Source of the DNA: Nostoc sp. TH1S01 | GTDB taxonomy: Bacteria > Cyanobacteriota > Cyanobacteriia > Cyanobacteriales > Nostocaceae | Direction of reading: 5' to 3' | Assembly (NCBI GenBank): GCA_018993265.1 | Contig: JAGKSW010000148.1 | Span: 1 to 46,202 of the forward strand | Length of the DNA stretch: 46,202 nucleotides | In this document: one piece after another, positions 1 through 22,227 of the stretch | Numbering within the stretch: position 1 is the stretch's first letter | Layout: each line of letters opens with the position of its first letter | Notes under the pieces: model-generated | Told to the model about the DNA's origin: nothing | Database searches by the model: none | The model's input: only the letters and a program-made list of their open reading frames with translations | Translations under genes and position numbers: made by a program

Positions 1-450
1 CCCCTAATACGTGCCGTGGGTGATCGTGCAGGCGTTGCTACTACTCTCAATAACATTGGTGCAGTCTACTCCGAATTAGGAGAAAAGCAGCAAGCATTGT
101 CATATTACAACCAAGCTCTGCCCCTCATACGTGCCGTGGGTGATCGTGCAGGTGAAGCCACTACTCTCAATAACATTGGTGGAGTCTACTCCGCGTTAGG
201 AGAAAAGCAGCAGGCATTGTCATATTACAACCAAGCTCTGCCACTAATACGTGCCGTAGGCGATCGCATGGGGGAAGCCTCTACTCTCAATAACATTGGT
301 GTAGTCTACGACGAATTAGGAGAAAAGCAGCAGGCATTGTCATATTACAACCAAGCTCTGCCCCTAATACGTGCGCTAGGCGATCGCGCGGGGGAAGCCA
401 GAATTCTCAATAACATTGGTCGAGTTTCCGACGCATTAAAAGAAAAGTAG
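1..450 (+). CDS. TPR (kinesin-light-chain type) repeat protein, 5' end outside window, cut by a stop
   Basis: The reading frame is open to the left edge, so the start lies outside the window. It encodes successive 40-residue tetratricopeptide repeats with the pattern TLNNIG.VY..LGEKQQALSYYNQALPLIRA. TPR arrays of this kind are protein-interaction scaffolds and in Nostocales often belong to large proteins with a CHAT or NB-ARC domain; no such domain is visible here. The frame ends at a TAG (448-450) that sits exactly where the other repeats have a Gln codon (EKQQAL becomes EK-stop-QAL). The repeat continues in the same frame afterwards, so this is probably a CAG-to-TAG nonsense change and not a natural end. 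The GTG at 16 is not a credible start. Confidence 0.7.
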   Translation, partial: PLIRAVGDRAGVATTLNNIGAVYSELGEKQQALSYYNQALPLIRAVGDRAGEATTLNNIGGVYSALGEKQQALSYYNQALPLIRAVGDRMGEASTLNNIGVVYDELGEKQQALSYYNQALPLIRALGDRAGEARILNNIGRVSDALKEK

Positions 451-1600: not shown

Positions 1601-3073
1601 ATGCTTACAAGTACCCTACTTCTCTCGAACCAACTACCGACCTTACAATACTCCTCCACTACAGAACGATTCGATGAAACGTGGGAAGCCCCACTGGCTA
1701 CCCTTTTGGGACTAGGACGCGCCGCTGGTGCTGACTTCATCGAATTTTTCTTAGAGCGCCGCAATTATATTAGTTGTTTAGCAGAAGATGATGCTATCAC
1801 CAGCATTTCACCGAGTTTGGCAACAGGCGCAGGCGTGAGAGTATTTCGCGGCAAAGCTGACTGCTATGTCAGCACAAATGACCTTTCCTTTTCTGGGTTA
1901 AAAGCAGCTTTAGAAAAAGGACTTTCCATTTTAGGCTTACAACTACCCGCGCCTTATTCCTTCATCCCAGAAATCAACCTAGAATTATTGCGAGATTACG
2001 CCACAAAAAGAGGCAAAGATGGCTGGTTAGGGCTGTGTAGTTCAATCCGCGAAATGGGCGAAGTTCTTTTGGATGGTACTGCTGCTCTCAACCAAAAAGC
2101 CAACCATGTACAATCTCGCCGCGCCACTTATTTCCGAGATTGGCAAGAAGTATTAGTGGCTTCTAGTGATGGCACCTTTGCTCGTGACATTCGCCTCACC
2201 CAATCAGTAGGATTTAACTTGTTGTGTGCTGATGGTGCAAATCGGGCTTCCATTGGTGAACGTGCCGGAAACACCAGCGATGCTAACTTCCTGAGAACTT
2301 GGGATTATACTCAAGCCGCCGAGCAAATAGCTGAATCTGCTGGCAAGATGTTATATGCAGATTACGTTGAATCTGGTACTTACCCCATCATCATGGCTAA
2401 TCACTTTGGTGGCGTAATCTTCCACGAAGCCTGCGGACATTTGCTAGAAACCACTCAAATTGAGCGTAATGTCACCCCATTTGCCGATAAAAAAGGCGAA
2501 AAAATCGCTCACGAAAGTTTAACCGCTTGGGATGAAGGGCGTTCTGACAATGCCTTCGGGACAATCGATATGGATGACGAAGGTATGCCAGCCCAGAGAA
2601 CATTACTCATAGAAAAAGGCGTTCTCAAAAACTTCTTAGCAGATAGAGCAGGTTCTTGGCGTACCGGACACCCCAGAACAGGCAGTGGTCGCCGTCAAAA
2701 TTATACCTTTGCTGCTGCCAGCCGGATGCGTAACACTTATATTGCCACTGGCGACTACACCAACGAAGATTTATTTGCCTCTGTTGATAAAGGTATTTAC
2801 TGTAAAAAAATGGGCGGCGGTAGTGTTGGCGCTACAGGTCAATTTAACTTTAGTGTCGATGAAGCTTATTTAATTGAAAATGGCAAAATTACTAAGCCAT
2901 TAAAAGGAGCAATTCTCATTGGTGAAGCCAAGGAAATTATGAATAAAATTTCCATGTGTTCCCAAGACCTAGAATTAGCACCTGGTTTCTGCGGTTCCGT
3001 TAGTGGCAGTATTTACACCACAGTTGGACAACCACACATCAAAGTTGATTCCATAACAGTAGGTGGACGTTAA
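1601..3073 (+). CDS. tldD: TldD family metalloprotease
   Basis: This 490-residue protein has the length and order of the TldD family. The zinc-site motif HEACGH (His275, Glu276, His280) gives the family's HExxxH, and a late FCGSVSG supplies the expected third ligand Cys. In E. coli, TldD pairs with TldE/PmbA and degrades unfolded peptides; the pair processes microcin B17 and the CcdA antitoxin. The ATG at 1601 has no strong Shine-Dalgarno, but the family similarity is dense from about residue 30 onward. The gene is followed after 94 bases by its partner pmbA on the same strand, the usual cyanobacterial arrangement. TldD should be the catalytic subunit, since its partner has no zinc motif. Confidence 0.95.
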
Positions 3074-3167
3074 TCATTCATATATCAAACCACAGATGTA
3101 CACAGATGTCTGCGTCCATCTGCGTTCATCTGCGGTTAATTTAAAATCCAAAATCTAAAATTTGACT

Positions 3168-4508
3168 ATGCCTAATATCACTGAAATCGCAAATTACGCC
3201 AAGGAAAATGCTAATAAACTTGGCATTAAAAAATTTGACATCTATGGCTCAATAATAGACGAAACTAGCGTCCAAGTAGATCAGGGTGAGCCAAAACAAG
3301 TTAAAGCTTCCAATCGCTCTGGTGTTACCGTGCGTGTTTGGAATGAACAAAACACAATTGGCATTACCAGCACCACAGATGTAGACCCCAAAGGATTAGA
3401 ATTAGCATTAAAAACTGCCTACGATGCTAGTTTTTTTGGTGTCAAAGAAAACGTTCCTGATTTTAGTCCAGAAGCAACTGTTCCTATTGAACATACACCA
3501 GAAGATAAAGCACCCCAAGCCCCAGTTTCTGAACTCATAGAAAAATTGCTAGTAGCAGAAAAAGAATTACTATCGGCTCATCCAGCAATTCAAGGTGTAC
3601 CTTACAACGGTTTGGCACAAAGAGATATTGATAGATTTTATCTCAATAGTGATGGTGCAATCAGAACTGAATCGCACTCTATCGCCTCAGTTTATCTTTA
3701 CAGCAAAACCGAAGAAGAAGATAAAAAACCCCGCAGTGGTAACGCTTATAGAATCAGCCGCCGTGTTGATGAGCTTGATATTAATGGTTGCATCAAAGAA
3801 GCAGCAGACAAAACTATCAGTCATTTAAACTACGACAAGGTTAAGTCTGGTAAATATTTGGTTGTTTTCTCGCCTGATGCTTTTTTAAGTTTGCTGGGTG
3901 CTTTTTCTAATTTGTTCAATGCTCAAAATATTTTAGATAAGCAAAGTCTGTCTACTCCTGATGATTTAGGTAAAGAAATCGCTTCTCCATTGCTTTCAGT
4001 TTATGATGATGCACTACATCCGGCTAATATTGGTGCAGAAACTTTTGATGGTGAAGGAACACCAACGCGTCAAGTAAAATTAATTGAAAATGGCGTGTTA
4101 ACAGGTTTTCTTCACAGTGCTGGTACTGCTAAAAGACTGAATGCTCAACCTACAGGTAATGCCAGTATTGGTGCAAAAGTCAGCGTCAGTCCTAACTTTT
4201 ATCATATATTTGCAGCCGCAACCCCTGAGCAGAAATTTAGTTTAGAAACTGCGGAAAATGTAATTTTGATTGATGATTTACAAGCTCTACATGCTGGGGT
4301 GAAAGCTTTACAAGGTTCTTTTTCTTTACCTTTTGATGGTTGGTTAATTAACAAAGGCGAGAAGACAAGTATTGAGTCAGCTACTGTGGCTGGCGATTTC
4401 TTACAAGTTCTAAAGTCTATTGTTTATGTAGAAAAAGAAGTCGAATTAACTCCCGGTGGTGTTTCTCCCAGAGTTTGGGTTGATGGACTTTCAATTACTG
4501 GCGAATAG
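3168..4508 (+). CDS. pmbA: TldE/PmbA family protein, non-catalytic partner of TldD
   Basis: The 446-residue protein has the PmbA/TldE C-terminal signature (ETFDGEGTPTR, NGVLTGFLHSAGTAKRL, GNASIG, LTPGGVSPRVWVDGLSITG). It lacks the HExxxH of TldD, as the family does. It is expected to form the heteromeric TldD/E protease, with the active site on TldD. I chose the ATG at 3168; the TTG two codons upstream (3162) would add only two residues. It is probably co-transcribed with tldD. A strong inverted repeat (4531-4560) lies 22 bases after the stop and probably ends the transcript. Confidence 0.93.
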   Translation: MPNITEIANYAKENANKLGIKKFDIYGSIIDETSVQVDQGEPKQVKASNRSGVTVRVWNEQNTIGITSTTDVDPKGLELALKTAYDASFFGVKENVPDFSPEATVPIEHTPEDKAPQAPVSELIEKLLVAEKELLSAHPAIQGVPYNGLAQRDIDRFYLNSDGAIRTESHSIASVYLYSKTEEEDKKPRSGNAYRISRRVDELDINGCIKEAADKTISHLNYDKVKSGKYLVVFSPDAFLSLLGAFSNLFNAQNILDKQSLSTPDDLGKEIASPLLSVYDDALHPANIGAETFDGEGTPTRQVKLIENGVLTGFLHSAGTAKRLNAQPTGNASIGAKVSVSPNFYHIFAAATPEQKFSLETAENVILIDDLQALHAGVKALQGSFSLPFDGWLINKGEKTSIESATVAGDFLQVLKSIVYVEKEVELTPGGVSPRVWVDGLSITGE

Positions 4509-7767: not shown

Positions 7768-8229
7768 ATGGTTATGCGCTTTCCCATAATTGCAGCTACC
7801 TTTATGGCTGCTAGTATCAGTATCGGTACACTTTTGGGCGCTGCTACCCCAGCTTCAGCCCAAGAGATAATCACTTGTTCTAGCCAGAATAATCGGCGGA
7901 GTATTTGTTCAGTACCTGGTAGAGGTAGAGTGAGATTTGTTAGACAATTATCTAACGCCAGTTGTCGAAACAATTGGGGCTACCGAGGAAATCGTATCTG
8001 GGTACGAAATGGTTGCCGCGCTGAGTTTGCTGTTGGCAATAACAGAAACGATAGGTATGACCGAAATGATCGTTTTAACAGAAACGATAGATACTACAGA
8101 AATGATCGCTATTACAGAAATGATCGTTTTAACAGAAACGATAGATACTACAGAAACGATCGGTATGACAGAGACAATAGATACTACAGAAACGACAGGT
8201 ATAACCGCAACGATAGGTATTACAGATAG
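7768..8229 (+). CDS. Secreted DUF3011 protein with RNDRY repeat tail
   Basis: The 153-residue product starts with a clear signal peptide ending in ATPASAQE. A short Cys-containing domain follows (ITCSSQNNRRSICSVPGRG, then CRNNWGYRGNRIWVRNGCRAEF), which looks like DUF3011. From about residue 92 to the end it consists only of five- and ten-residue repeats such as RNDRYYRNDRFN, rich in Arg, Asn, Asp and Tyr. It should be exported; the tail is charged, disordered and possibly able to bind polyanions, cell wall or metals. ATG at 7768 or 7774 (MVMRF) are both possible starts. Function is unknown. Confidence 0.8.
   Translation: MVMRFPIIAATFMAASISIGTLLGAATPASAQEIITCSSQNNRRSICSVPGRGRVRFVRQLSNASCRNNWGYRGNRIWVRNGCRAEFAVGNNRNDRYDRNDRFNRNDRYYRNDRYYRNDRFNRNDRYYRNDRYDRDNRYYRNDRYNRNDRYYR
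8041..8226 (+). repeat. 15/30-bp tandem repeat coding for RNDRY units
   Basis: Units such as agaaacgatagatac and agaaatgatcgttttaac recur through the 3' third of the DUF3011 gene. Because the repeat contains no stop in several frames, overlapping long frames appear on both strands here; they are artefacts. Confidence 0.85.
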
Positions 8230-15802: not shown

Positions 15803-17644
15803 CTACTGATAGCTACTTGCTTGCCGATTAAACATGAGATGATATTGTCCGCCTCTTGCTATTAATTCCTTATGACTTCCTGTTTCTATAATTTTGCCAT
15901 TTTCTAACACAATAATCCGGCCTGCCAGTTTGCATAAAGCTAAACGATGACTGATGACAACAGTCATTTTATTAGTAGCAATGGTACGTAAAAGCTGGTA
16001 AATTTCATGCTCGGTTTTCGGATCGAGTGCGCTTGTAGGTTCGTCCAAAATTAATAGTTGTGCTGAGGATAATCGTATCAGCGCACGAGCGATCGCAATT
16101 CTTTGCCACTGTCCTCCTGACAAGTCTACCCCACCTGCTAATTGCTTACCTAATATTGTCTCTAAGCCTTGCGGGAGATTGTCCACAGCCTTGGCAATTC
16201 CAGCTGTCCTCAGTGCCTCGTTGATAGCGTTAATATCCTGTAGCGCAGGTAAGTATCCAAAACCCACATTTTCACACACTGTAGCGGGAAACCGAGCATA
16301 ATCTTGCATTACCACAGCAACGCGTGAGTATAGCTGTGCTAAGTCAATTTCCCGTAAGTCCTGTCCGTTCCACAAAATCTCGCCACTACTTGGATCGTAC
16401 AGGCGACAGAGTAACTTAGCCAGAGTCGTTTTCCCCGCACCATTTTCCCCTACTAAGGCGATCGTTTGCTGCGGCTGAATTGTGAGGTTGATGTTGTCTA
16501 AAATCTTGCTGTCGCTACCAGGATAAGCAAAAGATAAGTTCTTGATTTCGATTCCCTGTTGCTTTGTTAACGACAAATTAACAGCAGTATCATACCTTAA
16601 AGCTAACGATAACCGCAATTTCGGCTTCAGTTCTAATAATTGAAAAATCGGACGGGTACCCAAAACCACATCATACAAGTTAGAACCATTATTAATCAGT
16701 AAAAACAAACTCTGGCGTACTTGTAGGATTAAACCTGCATAAAGTGCTAAATCTCCTAAAGTATAAATTCCGCGTAAAGCTCCCATAACAACATAAATAT
16801 AGGGTAAAGCGGCTCCTAATCCATTCACAATTGACCAAGAAATTACCAGCACCGTCCCTTTTTTACGGATTTGCTGCATCGATCTAAACATGGTCTGGAA
16901 AAGACTGTGCCACCGAGTCAGCAATAAAGGTTGTAGCTGAAATAAGCGTAATTCTTTGGCATAAGCTTCACCCACCAAGACATCCCGATACAAGTTCATT
17001 TGGCGGACAAGACTCGCCTGAGTTTCTTCGACTTCCCAACTTTTTTTGCGGTAAGTCAATTCCACGTAAATAGCTGGTGTAGCAGAGGTAAATAAAATTA
17101 ACGGTATCCACCAAGCAATTGAGCCAGAGACCAAAATAGCAGGAATTAAAATAAAAAAACCATGCAAAGTTGTGATTACAAGCAAAGATAGTTCCTTGAG
17201 CCGTTCTATTCCTGTTTCTGCCAGTTGCACCAAATTCAATAATTCGGGTGTTTCAAATAACGCGATATCTGTAAAATTAGCAACTTTATTCAGCACAATA
17301 CTTTGAGCAAAACCTTGAACGCGATCGCGCAGCGAAGAAAAAACAAAGTTGGTAATCCCGTTTATTGATTCGGTTAATAAATTAAGTAATATTAATCCGC
17401 TAATGCTACCAAGTAATAGTGGTTCTTGTAGGATAAGAGCGAGCGAGCTTGCTGTAGCAAATTTCCCTAATAAATGGGAGATTTGGTCAATAATAATTTT
17501 GTTGAGAAACAGTGAAATTGCTGGGCTAGAACCACTAATTAGAGTTAAAAATATCAGAGTGCGTAACTCAGTAGGTGCTGACTGAATTACTAACAGCAGG
17601 CTACGCCGAAAAGTTTGAAATAGGCTGGGTTGGCTCGGTTGCAC
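15803..17644 (-). CDS. ABC exporter of the lasso-peptide cluster (McjD-like)
   Basis: The 613-residue half-transporter has an N-terminal membrane domain (about residues 25-330, several hydrophobic segments) fused to one ATPase. Walker A is GENGAGKTTLAK (about 399-410), the signature DLSGGQWQRIAIARAL (about 508-522) and Walker B LLILDEPTSALD. There is no N-terminal C39 peptidase, so it exports an already matured product, as McjD does for microcin J25. It starts with GTG (17644), or less likely an inner start. It is divergent from the B-protein gene, sharing a 264-base promoter region with it. Taken alone it could be any type I exporter; the lasso role rests on its neighbours. Confidence 0.85.
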   Translation of the reverse strand: MQPSQPSLFQTFRRSLLLVIQSAPTELRTLIFLTLISGSSPAISLFLNKIIIDQISHLLGKFATASSLALILQEPLLLGSISGLILLNLLTESINGITNFVFSSLRDRVQGFAQSIVLNKVANFTDIALFETPELLNLVQLAETGIERLKELSLLVITTLHGFFILIPAILVSGSIAWWIPLILFTSATPAIYVELTYRKKSWEVEETQASLVRQMNLYRDVLVGEAYAKELRLFQLQPLLLTRWHSLFQTMFRSMQQIRKKGTVLVISWSIVNGLGAALPYIYVVMGALRGIYTLGDLALYAGLILQVRQSLFLLINNGSNLYDVVLGTRPIFQLLELKPKLRLSLALRYDTAVNLSLTKQQGIEIKNLSFAYPGSDSKILDNINLTIQPQQTIALVGENGAGKTTLAKLLCRLYDPSSGEILWNGQDLREIDLAQLYSRVAVVMQDYARFPATVCENVGFGYLPALQDINAINEALRTAGIAKAVDNLPQGLETILGKQLAGGVDLSGGQWQRIAIARALIRLSSAQLLILDEPTSALDPKTEHEIYQLLRTIATNKMTVVISHRLALCKLAGRIIVLENGKIIETGSHKELIARGGQYHLMFNRQASSYQ

Positions 17645-17908
17645 TCAAGGTTAAATAATGTCTTGGATTTAGCTAATTTAATTGACAATAAATATTCTTG
17701 CCTCTATCTTACCTTGCCATAATACATATTATGGTTCGATGACTTGCATGATTTTTAATCAGTTTGATTTCTAATACATCCCCTTAAATAATGAAATCAA
17801 CTGAATGAACTTCAGTCTAAATATGGAGCTTAGAATTTTCTAACACATCTAGAATACCAAGTAGATGATATTGAAAAGAGTAGCAAGACGAATAAAAGGA
17901 CAAACTTG
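17645..17908. promoter_or_regulatory. Divergent promoter region of the lasso cluster
   Basis: This 264-base AT-rich region separates the exporter (minus) and B protein (plus) and must carry both promoters. I see no confident -10/-35 pair or known regulator site. AAAAGGA (17894-17900) is the Shine-Dalgarno of the B gene. Confidence 0.5.
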
Positions 17909-18694
17909 ATGGGTGAAAACAGCAGTCCTTATAGTCTTAATCGGGACGTATTTCTATTTTTACAAGATGGGATAGCCCAAATCTTGGACTTTAAGCATGG
18001 GCAGTTTTATGGTCTAGATGCAATTGCTACATTAATGTTGTCACTGGTATTAGAAAAAGGGGTAGAAGAGACAGTTAACGAACTAACTACAATCTATGAT
18101 GTAACAGAAGAAAATGTTCGCTCTGACTTGAATATACTCTTACAGGAATTAAAGCAAAAAAAGCTACTTGTTACTAATGTAAAATCATTCAATTTTTTGT
18201 TGTATTTAATACAATATCAATTAAAAGTAATCAACAAAATTTTACTTTTGCTCTTTAAAACAGTCAGTGCAATTTTCCGCAATTTATTCAACCCTGAACC
18301 AACCCCAAATCGCCTTACAGTTGAGCTATTGTTAAGCTTAAGTTGGCTCAGTTTTCGTCTACTCGGATGGAGTCGCACTCTCTCATTGTGGCAGCACTGG
18401 CATCGTGCAGTATTACCAACTGACACCACAGGAACAACAGATATCATTGAGAATGTAGATCGAATGGTGCGGGAAACTGCTGCTAGTAAGCTTTTCTTAC
18501 CAATGGTGTGTAAAGAACGCGCTCTGGTTGGTTATCATCTTCTCCGTACTTTTTACGCCTTACCTGCAACTTTAGTTATCGGCATAGATCGCTATCCGTT
18601 TCAAGTCCACGCCTGGGTTGAGTGTAATGGCTTAGTTGTGACTGACGAACAGGCTCATTGTCAACCCTTTATGCCAGTTGTCAGATATTCTTAA
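17909..18694 (+). CDS. Lasso peptide maturation protein B: fused PqqD-like recognition domain and transglutaminase-like protease
   Basis: The 261-residue protein has two parts. Residues 1-90 (SLNRDVFLFLQDGIAQILDF, then DAIATLMLSLVLEKG) are PqqD-like, the RiPP recognition element that holds the leader peptide. After a linker, residues 140-261 match the lasso B2 cysteine protease: SLSWLSFRLLGW, catalytic Cys in LPMVCKERALVGYHLLR (C201), His in FQVHAWVECNG (H234) and Asp in VVTDE (D246). It should cut the leader from the precursor. The fusion is the McjB arrangement. The ATG at 17909 follows AAAAGGA with good spacing; the TTG just before it is less likely. It is the first gene of the A-containing run, with 281 bases before the precursor. 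Confidence 0.9.
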   Translation: MGENSSPYSLNRDVFLFLQDGIAQILDFKHGQFYGLDAIATLMLSLVLEKGVEETVNELTTIYDVTEENVRSDLNILLQELKQKKLLVTNVKSFNFLLYLIQYQLKVINKILLLLFKTVSAIFRNLFNPEPTPNRLTVELLLSLSWLSFRLLGWSRTLSLWQHWHRAVLPTDTTGTTDIIENVDRMVRETAASKLFLPMVCKERALVGYHLLRTFYALPATLVIGIDRYPFQVHAWVECNGLVVTDEQAHCQPFMPVVRYS

Positions 18695-18975
18695 AGGCAA
18701 TAGTCGATGAATAGATAGCGATAATTAAAGTTAAAGGTGTAAACACTTATTTTTTGAACTGATATTATGAAAAATTCTAGTAATTTTCAGGTTTTCCTCC
18801 TTAATAAAAATATTGATAAAACAACTTTTGTAGGCTTTAATTAAGGAAGAATATAAGTGTAAATAGAGCCTTTCTAACAAGTGGTGGGCGAGTGATTTTT
18901 TTGGCAGCAGAAGCAAGAAAGAAATGTAAAAATCGCTCAATTAGGTCATAAGTCTTGAGCAAAAGGAGGCTACTT
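18695..18975. other. Spacer between B protein and precursor genes
   Basis: This is 281 bases, AT-rich, with no convincing gene. An ATG at 18766 opens a 25-codon frame without lasso-leader features. The length suggests a separate promoter for the precursor, which would allow it to be made in excess over the enzymes. It ends in the strong Shine-Dalgarno AAGGAGG (18963-18969). Confidence 0.5.
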
Positions 18976-19131
18976 ATGTCTAAAAAATTAGAAGGTGTCG
19001 AGCTAAATTATTCCCAACCTAAAGTTTATTTCCAACCTAAAATTTACTCGCTTGGGTCTATAAACCAAGTTCAATCTTATTACCAGGGTCGTTATCTCGA
19101 AGGGCCGAATTCACGGTACTGGTACAGCTAG
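18976..19131 (+). CDS. Lasso peptide precursor (51 residues)
   Basis: The ATG lies six bases after a perfect AAGGAGG. The 51-residue product has a leader with the lasso pattern Y-x2-P-x-[LI]-x3-G: Y18, P21, I23, G27 in YFQPKIYSLGSINQVQS. Counting the usual five residues after that Gly puts position -2 at Gln33 and -1 at Ser34, so the core would be YYQGRYLEGPNSRYWYS (residues 35-51). Its Glu8 (E42) is the only acidic residue in the core and stands exactly where an eight-residue macrolactam ring needs it. The nine-residue tail has bulky Arg, Tyr and Trp residues that could hold the threaded form. Position 1 Tyr and the missing Thr at -2 are unusual. A start at Tyr36 (seven-residue ring, Ser34 at -2) or Ser34 (nine-residue ring) cannot be excluded. 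The gene lies between the B protein and the cyclase, as expected. Confidence 0.82.
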   Translation: MSKKLEGVELNYSQPKVYFQPKIYSLGSINQVQSYYQGRYLEGPNSRYWYS

Positions 19132-19209
19132 TTAGTAAAGGGTTAGGGATACTAAGTCACAGGCAAGTTTAAGAAATTAGCAAAATTATGCCCTAGGGAG
19201 GCAAGAGAA

Positions 19210-20358
19210 ATGGTAGAGCGAGTATATATCGTCTCAAAAGGAGTGAATGAGCAGAATTCTACGCGACCACCTACACTTATAGTTCAAGAGAGGGAGGTAA
19301 ACCCAAAGTCGTATACATGGAAATGGGGATTTCAAGGTAAAACAGGTTGGGATTGGGCGCAATTGTTGTTCGTTCCTCTTGCATTGGGTTTGCTGACTTT
19401 ATTTGTTAATGATCAAGCTCAGAAAAGAGAACGATATGCCCTTGAAGAAAGAAAAAGCCAGGAAGTGGTGCAAGATTATCTGAGCAAGATGATAGATTTG
19501 GTATCAGACGGAAAACTAGGACAACTAAGCGATAAAGAAAAACCAGAATTACTTCAGCCAACATCTACAGCAGCCAAAGCTTTGACACAATCAGTATTAG
19601 GAATCCTATCGAAGGATTCCCCATCAATACTTGCGAATGATGCCAAATTAAGGCTTGAAGCGGATAATGCTGGGCGGAAAGGTCAAGTCTTACGTTTCTT
19701 GTATGATTCAGGGTTAAACACTTATAACTATTCAAAGTATAAAAAACAACTAGAAACTAAACCCGAATCTAAACCAGACTCCACAATTGATATGGAGGGT
19801 ATAGAACTATCAGGGGCGAATCTGCAAAACATGAGCTTTGGCTCAGATCCACAGAATCAGCAAAGAGATGGTTATCAACCAGATTTGTCGCCTATCAACC
19901 TAGGTAAAGCAATACTAATAGACGCTAACTTGAGTGGGTCTAACCTGAATAAAGCTTATCTACAAAAAGCTAGACTATCCAACGCTGATTTGCAATCGAC
20001 TCAGCTAGAGAACGCCGACCTACAAAGGGCTAACTTGGTAGGGGCTAACTTGGCAGGGGCTAACTTAACAGGAGCGGATCTTAGTTATGCCGATCTGACA
20101 GGAGCTGACTTGACAGGTGCTAATCTAAGTGGGAGCAAAACTATCCATGATGCTAAGCTGATTCATGCTAAGTTAAAGGGGGCTAAACTAAGAGATGCCA
20201 ATTTGGCTAATGCTCACCTCAACGAAGTCGATTTGACTGACGCTGACTTAACGAATGCCAATCTAAATAATGCTGAAATACAAGAGGCAATAATTTGTAA
20301 CACCACTATGCCTCCAGGAACAGTTAACTCTAGCAATTGTCTTGGACAAGCGAACTGA
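19210..20358 (+). CDS. Membrane-anchored pentapeptide-repeat protein inside the lasso cluster
   Basis: The 382-residue protein has a cytoplasmic N-terminus, one transmembrane segment (about 50-66, WAQLLFVPLALGLLTLFV), a charged helical part (70-190) and a C-terminal right-handed pentapeptide helix (about 195-362; ANLSGSNLNKAYLQKARLSN, NLVGANLAGANLTGADLSYA). The start follows AGGGAGG at 19195-19201. The N-terminal WDW...LLFVPL part is a familiar cyanobacterial membrane-pentapeptide layout. It is located 78 bases after the precursor and 21 bases before the cyclase, all on one strand, so it is probably co-transcribed with them. Pentapeptide proteins such as McbG/Qnr protect gyrase from inhibitors, so a self-protection role is conceivable but unproven; it could also be an unrelated passenger. 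Confidence 0.85.
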   Translation: MVERVYIVSKGVNEQNSTRPPTLIVQEREVNPKSYTWKWGFQGKTGWDWAQLLFVPLALGLLTLFVNDQAQKRERYALEERKSQEVVQDYLSKMIDLVSDGKLGQLSDKEKPELLQPTSTAAKALTQSVLGILSKDSPSILANDAKLRLEADNAGRKGQVLRFLYDSGLNTYNYSKYKKQLETKPESKPDSTIDMEGIELSGANLQNMSFGSDPQNQQRDGYQPDLSPINLGKAILIDANLSGSNLNKAYLQKARLSNADLQSTQLENADLQRANLVGANLAGANLTGADLSYADLTGADLTGANLSGSKTIHDAKLIHAKLKGAKLRDANLANAHLNEVDLTDADLTNANLNNAEIQEAIICNTTMPPGTVNSSNCLGQAN

Positions 20359-20379
20359 TAGGATGATTTTGGGTTAGAC

Positions 20380-22227
20380 ATGAGAACCGGATTTGAAGTC
20401 ACCCTAGAAGCAACCGGAAACGCTGAATTTCATCTATTTTCGCCAGCAACTTCCTTAGTAACATTCGCCCAAGACTCCGCAACAGAGATAGCAGTGGTAC
20501 TGATGGGACGAATTTATTACCAGGATGACAGGAAAAGTCGCTTTCCTCCAGCATTTCCGCAGGACTTCGCCTCAGACGCAGCTTTAGCATTGGCTATTTT
20601 CCAACATGATGGCGCACAAGGTTTAGAGAAACTTGAGGGTGAATTTGCGCTGGTGGTTTTCGATCGCAAGGAATCGCGTCTTTTAGCCCTGCGTGATCCT
20701 CTAGGAAACTTTCCCTTGTACTGGACGCACCACAACCAAACCACCTGGGTTAGCACTAGTTTGCAATTATTAGCGCAACGACTTCCCCAAGCTGCCATTA
20801 ATAAAGACTTTCTCGCTTCATTCTTAATGTTTCCCTATGCTTTTGTCGAGTTAGCTACTGAAAAGACGGCATTTGAGGAAATTCATCGGATTCTACCAGG
20901 TAATTTCTTAGTATTCACTCCCGATCGCCGGACAACAAAAATCTGGTCTTGGGACTGGATGAAGCAAATTCAACCGATAGAAAATATCACACCCCAGGAA
21001 GCTGGTTTACAGTTTATCGACCTTTTTCGGCAAGCAGTCAAACAGCGCATTCAGGACGAGAAAACCGCTTCTCACTTATCAGGAGGGATGGATAGCTCTT
21101 CTATAGTGTGTATTGCCCGCGACTTACTAGCCGCAGAAACCTCTCCCAGAAAGCTGATTACCCTTTCTTTGGTTTATCAAATGCGGAGTCTGGCAGGTGA
21201 AACAGATTACATTCAAATGGTTGTAGATCAAGGAGGCGCGATTGAACCACAGTATGTGGATGGGGATGCAGCTCTAGACTTCCAGTGGTTTACTCAAGAA
21301 ATCCCTACCTATGACGAACCTTATCCTGGTTTATTCCACTTAGCAATGGAAAAGGTGCTGGTGGATGTAGCTGCTCAGTTAGGGGTGACGGCGATTATGA
21401 GTGGAGGGGGAGCAGAACTGATTGTCGAAGGAAATCGGATGCACTTGGCAGATTTGATGCGTCAAGGTCACTGGCACAAGGCTCTACAAGAAGCGCGTCA
21501 ATGGGCTACTGCCAAGAACCAGAGTCTCTGGTCAATTTTGTACCCCTTCGGAATTGAACCTTTAATTCCGCCAGTGCTGCGAGAGGGCTTACCAGCTTTC
21601 ATCCGAGGCGGTTATGGACGCTGGCCAAAGCTAGGTTCATTTACTATTCCTCCTTGGATTCTTCCTGATTTTGCCAAGCAGCACGATATGTGGGGTAAGG
21701 CACTAGCGACTATACGTGAAATCAACAGATATCCGGTAGAGCAATCCTTAAATCTGCTAGGACTGCAAGCATCTGCGGGAAATTGGGCTGCTTGGTATCT
21801 TGCTGCACCTCTGGGAATCCGCATTTGCCAACCCTTCCTCGATCCGCGTCTGATTACCTACAGTCTCAGTCTCCCCAGAGAATTAAGAGAAATCCCTGAA
21901 GTTCCCAAACCTCTGCTGCAAGTAGCGATGGGCGGGATTCTACCTGAACCGATTCGGACTCGGCGGTTTAAGGGAAATTTCAACGAGGTGTATTGGCAGG
22001 GACTAGCCAAGAATTTACCCAAGCTAGAGGAAATGGTTGTTCAATCGCAGATTGATGAGTTAGGCATTTTCGACAAACAGCAATTGATTCAAGCCATGCG
22101 ACAACACGCGGTTGGGATTGGCGATGTGAGAAGTGGCAGCCGGATCAGTAGTTCATTAGCTGCGATCGCCTGGTTCGACCAAATCAAAGGCGATCGGAGA
22201 TCGGTTAACTGTAGGAGCCAGCAATAA
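20380..22227 (+). CDS. Lasso cyclase (asparagine synthetase B homologue, protein C)
   Basis: The 615-residue protein has the AsnB two-domain plan. The N-terminal glutaminase-like half (LEGEFALVVFDRKESRLLALRDPLGNFPLYW) starts MRTG, without the Cys2 nucleophile, so it cannot use glutamine. The C-terminal synthetase domain has the PP-loop HLSGGMDSSS (residues 232-241). These are the features of McjC-type cyclases, which adenylate the Asp/Glu side chain of the core and join it to the new N-terminus. The usual second motif GGDE reads GGAE here (SGGGAELI, 341-347), which is worth noting. The gene starts 21 bases after the pentapeptide-repeat gene. Taken with B, precursor and exporter, a lasso role is much more likely than asparagine synthesis. 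Confidence 0.9.
   Translation: MRTGFEVTLEATGNAEFHLFSPATSLVTFAQDSATEIAVVLMGRIYYQDDRKSRFPPAFPQDFASDAALALAIFQHDGAQGLEKLEGEFALVVFDRKESRLLALRDPLGNFPLYWTHHNQTTWVSTSLQLLAQRLPQAAINKDFLASFLMFPYAFVELATEKTAFEEIHRILPGNFLVFTPDRRTTKIWSWDWMKQIQPIENITPQEAGLQFIDLFRQAVKQRIQDEKTASHLSGGMDSSSIVCIARDLLAAETSPRKLITLSLVYQMRSLAGETDYIQMVVDQGGAIEPQYVDGDAALDFQWFTQEIPTYDEPYPGLFHLAMEKVLVDVAAQLGVTAIMSGGGAELIVEGNRMHLADLMRQGHWHKALQEARQWATAKNQSLWSILYPFGIEPLIPPVLREGLPAFIRGGYGRWPKLGSFTIPPWILPDFAKQHDMWGKALATIREINRYPVEQSLNLLGLQASAGNWAAWYLAAPLGIRICQPFLDPRLITYSLSLPRELREIPEVPKPLLQVAMGGILPEPIRTRRFKGNFNEVYWQGLAKNLPKLEEMVVQSQIDELGIFDKQQLIQAMRQHAVGIGDVRSGSRISSSLAAIAWFDQIKGDRRSVNCRSQQ

What the first reader, a model, noticed from the sequence alone, without database searches (positions are those of the whole stretch)
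15803..22227. Complete lasso-peptide gene cluster with an extra pentapeptide-repeat gene
The exporter, fused B protein (PqqD plus Cys/His/Asp protease), short precursor and AsnB-like cyclase without Cys2 stand together, which is the full set known to make lasso peptides. The order (exporter divergent; B, A, pentapeptide-repeat protein, C) is not the usual A-C-B-D order of proteobacteria. I know of no described product with this core.
Basis: partly seen in the sequence, partly recalled or inferred. Interest (0 to 1): 0.88.

Follow-up and report, generated by a model that had tools for sequence, protein, structure and literature searches.

The report
Cyanobacterial lasso-peptide cluster with pentapeptide-repeat partner
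A cyanobacterium carries a gene set that very probably makes a knotted, antibiotic-like peptide (a lasso peptide), and in most of its close relatives the precursor gene stands beside a matching pentapeptide-repeat gene that may protect the producer from its own product.

Summary
Window 15803-22227 carries a complete lasso-peptide cluster: exporter D (divergent), B (RRE fused to a Cys/His/Asp protease), a 51-aa precursor with a strong ribosome-binding site, a pentapeptide-repeat protein (PPR), and an AsnB-like cyclase without Cys2.

It belongs to a cyanobacterial lineage with fused B (21 loci found), whose cyclases form one group apart from the common split-B cyanobacterial cyclases. Precursors were found in 18 of 21 loci. 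All 21 precursor ORFs have an acidic residue at core position 7-9 in the published register; 18 of 21 have Gln where Thr(-2) is usual.

The PPR is not a random neighbour: it is in 8 of 10 uncut clusters of the closest clade, in none of the 10 other fused-B stretches and none of 22 split-B stretches inspected. Precursor and PPR come in two matched types that vary together while D and C stay 87-94% identical. Two uncut clusters lack it, so it is dispensable for biosynthesis.

Best reading: a new variant of a known kind, the PPR being a product-matched partner, most likely immunity (inferred, untested). The core is 17 residues (Tyr1-Glu8) or 18 (Ser1-Glu9).

The parts
15803..17644 (-). D: ABC exporter (permease + ATPase), GTG start
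   Evidence: ABC_tran 3.6e-32; 90-94% identical to D of the 5 other Nostocaceae clusters, in two of which the frame is broken or truncated
17909..18694 (+). B: fused leader-binding RRE (PqqD-like) and leader peptidase
   Evidence: PqqD at residues 26-88 and Transglut_core3 at 155-259 of P0001; NCBIfam lasso_biosyn_B2 above cut-off; model mean pLDDT 83, best PDB matches lasso RREs
18509..18646 (+). stretch holding the B residues Cys201, His234 and Asp246 (numbered from ATG 17909)
   Evidence: invariant in 15 of 15 aligned fused B proteins; their role as a catalytic triad is recalled from McjB, not from a call
18961..18969 (+). ribosome-binding site AAAAGGAGG of the precursor
   Evidence: sequence
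18976..19131 (+). A: 51-aa lasso precursor MSKKLEGVELNYSQPKVYFQPKIYSLGSINQVQSYYQGRYLEGPNSRYWYS
   Evidence: homologues aligned
19027..19056 (+). leader motif Y18-x2-P21-x-I23-x3-G27; a near-copy of its first part, YSQPKV, lies just upstream at 19009-19026
   Evidence: Y18, P21, G27 and Q33 invariant in 13 of 13. Of the 8 precursors outside that alignment, L095 has Arg at the Gly column and the two of L099 have no Gln at the Q33 column
19075..19128 (+). core peptide, 18 aa (Ser1-Glu9), or 17 aa starting at 19078 (Tyr1-Glu8)
   Evidence: two cleavage models; expected macrolactam masses 2270.018 and 2182.986 Da
19210..20358 (+). PPR: pentapeptide-repeat protein with N-terminal hydrophobic segment (best 19-residue window 48-66), helical region and C-terminal repeat domain
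   Evidence: Pentapeptide 4.7e-38; hydropathy; model with helices up to residue 182 at low confidence, then repeat coils with block pLDDT 73-95 at residues 231-370; only generic repeat-fold matches
20380..22227 (+). C: AsnB-like macrolactam (lasso) cyclase, no Cys2; SGGMDS at 21079-21096
   Evidence: Asn_synthase 1e-27, GATase_7 1e-15; lass_lactam_cya 3.9e-58 and macrolact_Ik_Al 2.4e-57, both below cut-off
17682..17710 (+). weak candidate promoter for B (TTGACA-17-TATCTT)
   Evidence: 10 of 12 match, but the whole scan found 16 sites against 14.1 +/- 3.9 in shuffles

Best explanation
This is an intact-looking lasso-peptide cluster of a cyanobacterial lineage with fused B. The leader of precursor A (YFQPKIYSLG) binds the RRE half of B, and the Cys protease half cuts the leader off. 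Cyclase C adenylates Glu42 of the precursor and joins it to the new N-terminus, trapping the aromatic tail. D exports the product. The PPR is not a biosynthetic enzyme but a partner matched to the product, probably membrane-anchored, most likely an immunity protein that binds the peptide or shields its target. Shown here: gene set, domain families, conserved residues, conserved precursor, co-variation of precursor and PPR, absence of the PPR from some uncut clusters. Inferred: cleavage, cyclisation, export, threaded topology, membrane anchoring and the role of the PPR. My estimate is about 0.9 for the lasso part and about 0.4 for the immunity role.
For: Families and motifs. Precursor: 18 of 21 fused-B loci carry one (21 ORFs). 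In the published register (YxxPxL at -17 to -12, PMC10368454) 21 of 21 have Asp/Glu at core position 7 (2), 8 (16) or 9 (3). PPR linkage: present in 8 of 10 uncut clusters of the 11-member cyclase clade. A search of 211 family genomes with the PPR N-terminal domain gave 6 strong hits (E 2.8e-53 or better), all inside these clusters; the next was 1.7e-11. The window genome has about 40 frames with pentapeptide repeats in 7.65 Mb (counted by eye from the 145 matches), about one per 190 kb, so adjacency by chance is unlikely. Co-variation among six Nostocaceae clusters: D 88-94%, B 78-87%, C 87-93% identical, while A and PPR fall into two matched types. Type 1 (window, L045): A 69%, PPR 56%. Type 2 (L044, L047, L048, L003): A 74-81%, PPR 45-66%. 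Across types: A 39-55%, PPR 29.5-32.6%. The window sides with type 2 (L044, L047, L048) against L045 at 48 to 4 sites in D and 66 to 7 in C. A window+L045 clade is rejected for C (p-AU 0.016) and borderline for D (0.0495). Xenococcus L049 has two precursors, each next to one of two adjacent PPR frames.
Against: No product has been seen. Both curated cyclase models score C below cut-off, and the record of a close relative names its C only 'asparagine synthase-related'. For the PPR: clusters L050/L119 and L101 lack it although their precursors are close (L101 core YYTGHYYDGPNSWYWYD), so it is not obligatory. Xenococcus L049 has a third pentapeptide-repeat frame about 1 kb beyond the second precursor, which blurs the two-to-two count. 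The co-variation rests on six related clusters, one of which (the window) carries the conflict; the group tested was chosen after the identities were seen. B is undecided (34 against 29 sites; window and L045 group at 64/98), and the concatenated D+B+C test is not significant (p 0.063). The search model for the PPR was built from the very proteins it recovered. The N-terminal half of the PPR model is of low confidence, and a hydrophobic segment is unlike the soluble Qnr/MfpA proteins (recalled).
Confidence: 0.72

Rival explanations
1. The lasso cluster is real but the PPR is not immunity: it is a membrane scaffold or escort for the enzymes, exporter or precursor.
For: It has an N-terminal hydrophobic segment and a helical region before the repeat domain and sits between A and C in a tight run (78 and 21 nt gaps). 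Co-variation with A would fit a precursor-binding role too.
Against: Clusters without it exist (L050/L119, L101, L095), and D, B and C change little between PPR types.
Confidence: 0.25
2. The PPR is a gyrase-protecting DNA mimic like Qnr, MfpA, AlbG or McbG, and the peptide targets gyrase.
For: PPRs protect against gyrase poisons such as albicidin and microcin B17 (start of the abstract of PMC7897471 in the listing), and one is the self-resistance gene of the speirobactin cluster (passages of PMC12406682). Fold matches include MfpA, QnrB1 and AlbG.
Against: The matches reflect the common repeat fold; the best ones are designed solenoids and Nostoc proteins. NCBIfam Qnr and MfpA scores are far below cut-off. 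The protein has a hydrophobic segment.
Confidence: 0.12
3. The PPR is a passenger: a common cyanobacterial gene kind that landed in this lineage and stayed by descent.
For: About 40 pentapeptide-repeat frames in this genome; weak relatives of its N-domain in 31 further genomes of 211; a third PPR frame near the Xenococcus cluster.
Against: It stays with A through different orders (D<B>A>PPR>C> against D<A>PPR<B>C>) and in distant G609 and Xenococcus.
Confidence: 0.2
4. The enzymes make a branched-cyclic or linear peptide rather than a threaded lasso, or the cyclase does another amidation.
For: C is below both curated cyclase cut-offs and the reference cyclases nearest to it lie on long branches.
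Against: The full lasso set, with an acid at 7-9 in 21 of 21 precursors.
Confidence: 0.08

Closest known systems
Albusnodin / ikarugamycin-family macrolactam cyclase systems (NCBIfam NF033561)
   Same: B2 protein of fused length in the Amycolatopsis example (about 250 aa); cyclase on the same side of the tree; second-best NCBIfam match of C
   Different: Far apart in sequence (long branches); that cluster has a GNAT gene next to B and no PPR or exporter among the annotated features of the stretch (the gene table is incomplete)
Common cyanobacterial lasso clusters with split B1/B2 (cyclase NF033535; e.g. Cyanocohniella, PMC9332814; Roseofilum, PMC9967302; passages read)
   Same: YxxP leader, AsnB-like cyclase, B2 family; the window genome itself has two (L056, L057)
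   Different: Split B, separate cyclase clade (100/98), Thr at the Gln column, no PPR in 22 stretches inspected
BsfA lasso precursor with Ile(-2) (PMC10368454, passages read)
   Same: Departs from the conserved Thr(-2); precedent for a Val/Ile(-2) reading of the window precursor
   Different: Separate B1 and B2 and a kinase; Gly1-Asp8 core
Microcin J25 (McjABCD)
   Same: ABC exporter D that also gives immunity (passages of PMC13352647); fused B and AsnB-like C (recalled)
   Different: No PPR; different gene order and leader (recalled)
Pentapeptide-repeat self-resistance proteins (McbG, AlbG, speirobactin gene E, Qnr, MfpA)
   Same: Repeat fold; gene beside a peptide-antibiotic pathway in the case of speirobactin
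   Different: The known ones protect gyrase and are soluble (recalled); this one has a hydrophobic segment and long helical region, and its target is unknown

Membership tests
Lasso-peptide biosynthetic cluster | Precursor with YxxPxL-type leader motif and acceptor Asp/Glu at core position 7-9 | tested here: met
   21 of 21 precursor ORFs. YxxP and some later acid were part of the search pattern for most of them; the acid's position was not
Lasso-peptide biosynthetic cluster | Thr at leader position -2 (usual, not defining) | tested here: not met
   Gln in 18 of 21, Val/Ile in 3 of 21 in the published register. Ile(-2) is validated elsewhere (PMC10368454)
Lasso-peptide biosynthetic cluster | RRE domain that binds the leader | tested here: met
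   PqqD family; fold match to TbiB1 with bound leader, E 1e-4. Binding itself not tested
Lasso-peptide biosynthetic cluster | B2 leader peptidase with Cys/His/Asp | tested here: met
   NF033537 above cut-off; invariant residues
Lasso-peptide biosynthetic cluster | AsnB-like cyclase with ATP-site motif and no glutaminase Cys2 | tested here: met
   curated cyclase models match only below cut-off
Lasso-peptide biosynthetic cluster | Threaded macrolactam product | not testable with these tools
   needs mass spectrometry and NMR
NCBIfam NF033535 cyanobacterial lasso cyclase | score above 525 bits | tested here: not met
   197.5 bits; separate clade
NCBIfam NF033561 albusnodin/ikarugamycin cyclase | score above 300 bits | tested here: not met
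   194.8 bits
Qnr/MfpA gyrase-protecting PPR | family score above cut-off | tested here: not met
   Qnr 42 of 240 bits, MfpA 41.4 of 360 bits
Qnr/MfpA gyrase-protecting PPR | gyrase binding | not testable with these tools
   needs biochemistry

The most novel reading that the evidence does not exclude
Precursor and PPR form an exchangeable product-immunity pair: a membrane-anchored pentapeptide-repeat protein is the specific self-protection factor of a lasso peptide, and the pair is swapped between otherwise conserved clusters, as toxin-immunity pairs are. I found no such role described for lasso peptides in the listings, which cover only the held open-licence papers.
Probability: 0.33. Interest if true: 0.72.

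Novelty: new variant of a known kind. Interest (0 to 1): 0.55.

Why it matters
Lasso peptides of cyanobacteria are called underexplored in print (PMC9967302, passage). This lineage is easy to miss: the cyclase is named only 'asparagine synthase-related' in the Nostoc sp. ATCC 53789 plasmid record, and no precursor appears in that record's gene table as held here, which is incomplete. If the matched precursor-PPR pairs are product and immunity, they give a handle on what these peptides hit and on a kind of self-protection beside the exporter. A leader with Gln where Thr is usual would also widen what is known about leader peptidase specificity.

Tried and rejected
Rfam gave no match at the gathering threshold in the window. 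Promoter and terminator scans were not clearly richer than shuffles. A PPR-based gyrase story was weighed and kept only as a rival because the fold matches are generic. The idea that only Ala, Gly or Ser can be core residue 1 was dropped as decisive: it fits 17 of the 19 precursors that have [VI]Q before the core, but would put Arg first in L046, Asp first in L095 and the acid at position 10 in one L053 precursor, whereas the published register keeps 7-9 in all 21. For the other side: Ile(-2) has a precedent (PMC10368454), the residues named in PMC12670498 as observed at position 1 are Gly, Cys, Ser and Ala (Asn proposed for metanodin), and L042 in strict register reads Val(-2)-Gln(-1)-Ser1-Asp9. 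I lean 55:45 to Tyr1-Glu8. A recombination map was tried: D and C are clear, B is mixed, so I claim co-variation and possible exchange, not breakpoints. Five loci fetched as possible fused B (L055, L058-L061) had no strong B hit and were dropped before counting. The 20 split-B comparison stretches were picked by me, mostly from the top of the list, not at random; six of the 22 split-B stretches have no cyclase hit and are not in the tree.
Full report
WHAT IS THERE. The window lies on contig C107 of a 7.65 Mb cyanobacterial genome. Five genes stand at 15803-22227: an ABC exporter D (-), then B, A, a pentapeptide-repeat protein (PPR) and C (all +). B combines a PqqD-like RRE and a Transglut_core3 peptidase and passes the NCBIfam lasso B2 cut-off (58.5 against 33 bits). 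C is AsnB-like with SGGMDS and no Cys in its first 45 residues; its two best NCBIfam models are lasso/macrolactam cyclases, both below cut-off. The precursor ATG at 18976 follows AAAAGGAGG by 6 nt; B starts best at ATG 17909. Gaps of 78 nt (A-PPR) and 21 nt (PPR-C) suggest joint transcription, which is inference.

RELATIVES. A scan of genome contigs with B gave five loci. NF033537 was searched in 388 genomes of the order: 106 have a match, and at least 14 of the 388 carry a fused B by my reading of frame lengths and of the maps of the stretches I fetched. Searches with B or the fused-B alignment (386 phylum genomes; 217 family genomes; 388 class genomes; these sets overlap) brought the set to 21 distinct loci: the window, L042-L054, L003 (= L100), L095-L099 and L101. 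One relative lies on conjugative plasmid pNsp_a of Nostoc sp. ATCC 53789 (L045 = L082). The window genome also has two split-B lasso clusters (L056, L057).

PHYLOGENY. In a tree of 44 cyclases (21 fused-B, 16 split-B, 7 references) the fused-B rows are one group (94/81, one change) and the split-B rows another (100/98); albusnodin-type cyclases and a Streptomyces cyclase lie on the fused side, the two AsnB controls, paeninodin-type and a Priestia cyclase on the other (99/96). Six of the 22 split-B stretches had no cyclase hit and are not in the tree. Long branches make the deeper placements unsure. The B model (mean pLDDT 83) matches lasso RREs best.

PRECURSORS. 18 of 21 loci have a precursor (21 ORFs). 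None was found in L043, L051 and L052; L051 ends at a contig edge just upstream of B, and a precursor-model search of the three genomes was also empty. Most were found with a pattern that asks for an aromatic-xxP motif, a later Gly and, a later acid; those of L095 and L099 were picked by eye. So the motif is partly a search condition, but the exact place of the acid is not. In the register of PMC10368454 (YxxPxL at -17 to -12; passages read) all 21 place Asp/Glu at 7 (2), 8 (16) or 9 (3). Position -2, usually Thr, is Gln in 18 and Val/Ile in 3. The window core is then YYQGRYLEGPNSRYWYS (Tyr1-Glu8, 17 aa). The other reading cuts after [VI]Q, giving SYYQGRYLEGPNSRYWYS (Ser1-Glu9): residue 1 is Ala/Gly/Ser in 17 of the 19 precursors with [VI]Q there, and Ile(-2) has an experimental precedent, but then L046 begins with Arg, L095 with Asp, and one L053 ring would have 10 residues. 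I lean 55:45 to the first. In several split-B cyanobacterial precursors with Thr(-2) the residue in position 1 is Ile, Val, Phe, Asn or Lys by the same register (my reading, unvalidated), so a large residue 1 may be tolerated in this phylum.

THE PPR. It is present in 8 of 10 uncut clusters of the 11-member cyclase clade (window, L045, L044, L047, L048, L003, L049, L054; absent in L050/L119 and L101; L051 is cut). 'Uncut' means that the surroundings of A, B and C are held; L049 and L101 show no close D in the fetched stretch, and D is broken in L044 and L047. No frame matches the window PPR at E 1e-5 in the fetched stretches of the 10 other fused-B loci (L042, L043, L046, L052, L053, L095-L099) or of the 22 split-B stretches. 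A genome-wide search of 15 of the fused-B genomes with the N-domain alignment gave strong hits only in G609 and G420; the genomes of L101, L050 and L095 gave none at E 0.001. In 211 family genomes six strong hits, all in these clusters, are followed by a drop to 1.7e-11; the model was made from these proteins, so this shows only that no unlinked near copy exists there. The genome has about 40 frames with pentapeptide repeats (counted by eye from 145 matches; 150 of 266 candidates scored). The N-terminal 180 residues find no paralogue in the own genome at E 0.001.

CO-VARIATION. In six Nostocaceae clusters D, B and C are 88-94%, 78-87% and 87-93% identical, but A and PPR split into two matched types with different gene orders: type 1 D<B>A>PPR>C> (window, L045) and type 2 D<A>PPR<B>C> (L044, L047, L048, L003). 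The window's D and C side with L044, L047 and L048 against L045: 48 against 4 and 66 against 7 informative sites (D only over the part that L044 still has). A clade of window+L045 is rejected for C (p-AU 0.016), borderline for D (0.0495), not for B (where the two already group, 64/98), and for the concatenation p is 0.063; the group was named after the identities had been seen. B sites are mixed (34 against 29). Xenococcus L049 has two precursors, each beside one of two adjacent PPR frames, but also a third pentapeptide-repeat frame about 1 kb further. This fits a precursor-PPR pair that moves or diverges as a unit, as expected of a product and its immunity or receptor partner; with six clusters it is suggestive, not proven.

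HOW IT LIKELY WORKS. Leader binding by the RRE, cleavage by the Cys protease, adenylation and ring closure by C, and export by D follow from the established lasso pathway (B roles and Thr(-2): PMC10368454 passages; McjD immunity: PMC13352647 passages). The PPR has a hydrophobic segment at 48-66, a helical region and a repeat domain; the model's N-terminal half is of low confidence. PPRs serve as protection against gyrase poisons (PMC7897471, start of abstract in a listing) and as self-resistance in the speirobactin cluster (PMC12406682, passages). Because some clusters lack it, it is not needed for biosynthesis, which favours a protective or accessory role.

LITERATURE. Two cyanobacterial lasso clusters in print that I read in passages are split-B types (PMC9332814, PMC9967302). 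'Lasso peptide' with 'pentapeptide repeat' gave seven papers, with 'cyanobacteria' two; 'lasso peptide', 'immunity', 'gene cluster' and 'pentapeptide' gave 21, of which 15 were listed. From listings and starts of abstracts none looks to be about such a cluster, but I did not read them through; of these I saw passages only of PMC13352647. The survey by Tietz and colleagues was not held. So the linkage may be visible in work I could not see.

VERDICT. The cluster is a new variant of a known kind; the pairing of precursor and PPR is the part worth testing.

Noticed in passing
L075 12357-12836, L076 12778-13323, L077 5927-6076: Split-B2 loci whose precursors keep YxxPxL..G..LT but have no Asp/Glu at 7-9, and no lasso cyclase hit in the stretch; neighbours include frames that look by eye like a glycosyltransferase and an ATP-grasp-like protein. 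Possibly another peptide class using lasso-type leader removal.
   Followed up: partly
L069, L073, L080: Three more loci with a lasso B2 match but no cyclase hit in the fetched stretch.
   Followed up: no
L119 8939-9130 with L050: In G530 the precursor lies at the end of contig C313, whose last 22 bases equal the first 22 of contig C35: order A>B>C>D> without PPR; the core has two Cys.
   Followed up: partly
L044 6214-7563 and L047 4879-6762: Exporter D is truncated or split into two frames in two relatives although A, B, C and PPR have open frames.
   Followed up: no
L056 and L057 (G000 C20 and C209): The window genome holds two further lasso clusters of the split-B type, one with three precursor-like frames.
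   Followed up: partly
window 19009-19044: The precursor has a tandem near-repeat of its leader motif (YSQPKV-YFQPKI); L045 keeps what looks like a decayed version.
   Followed up: no
window 1601-4508: A pair of genes that look (recalled, no family search) like the TldD/PmbA metalloprotease pair known from microcin B17 maturation.
   Followed up: no
window 7768-8229: Small exported-looking protein ending in a long run of RNDRYYRNDRF-like repeats.
   Followed up: no
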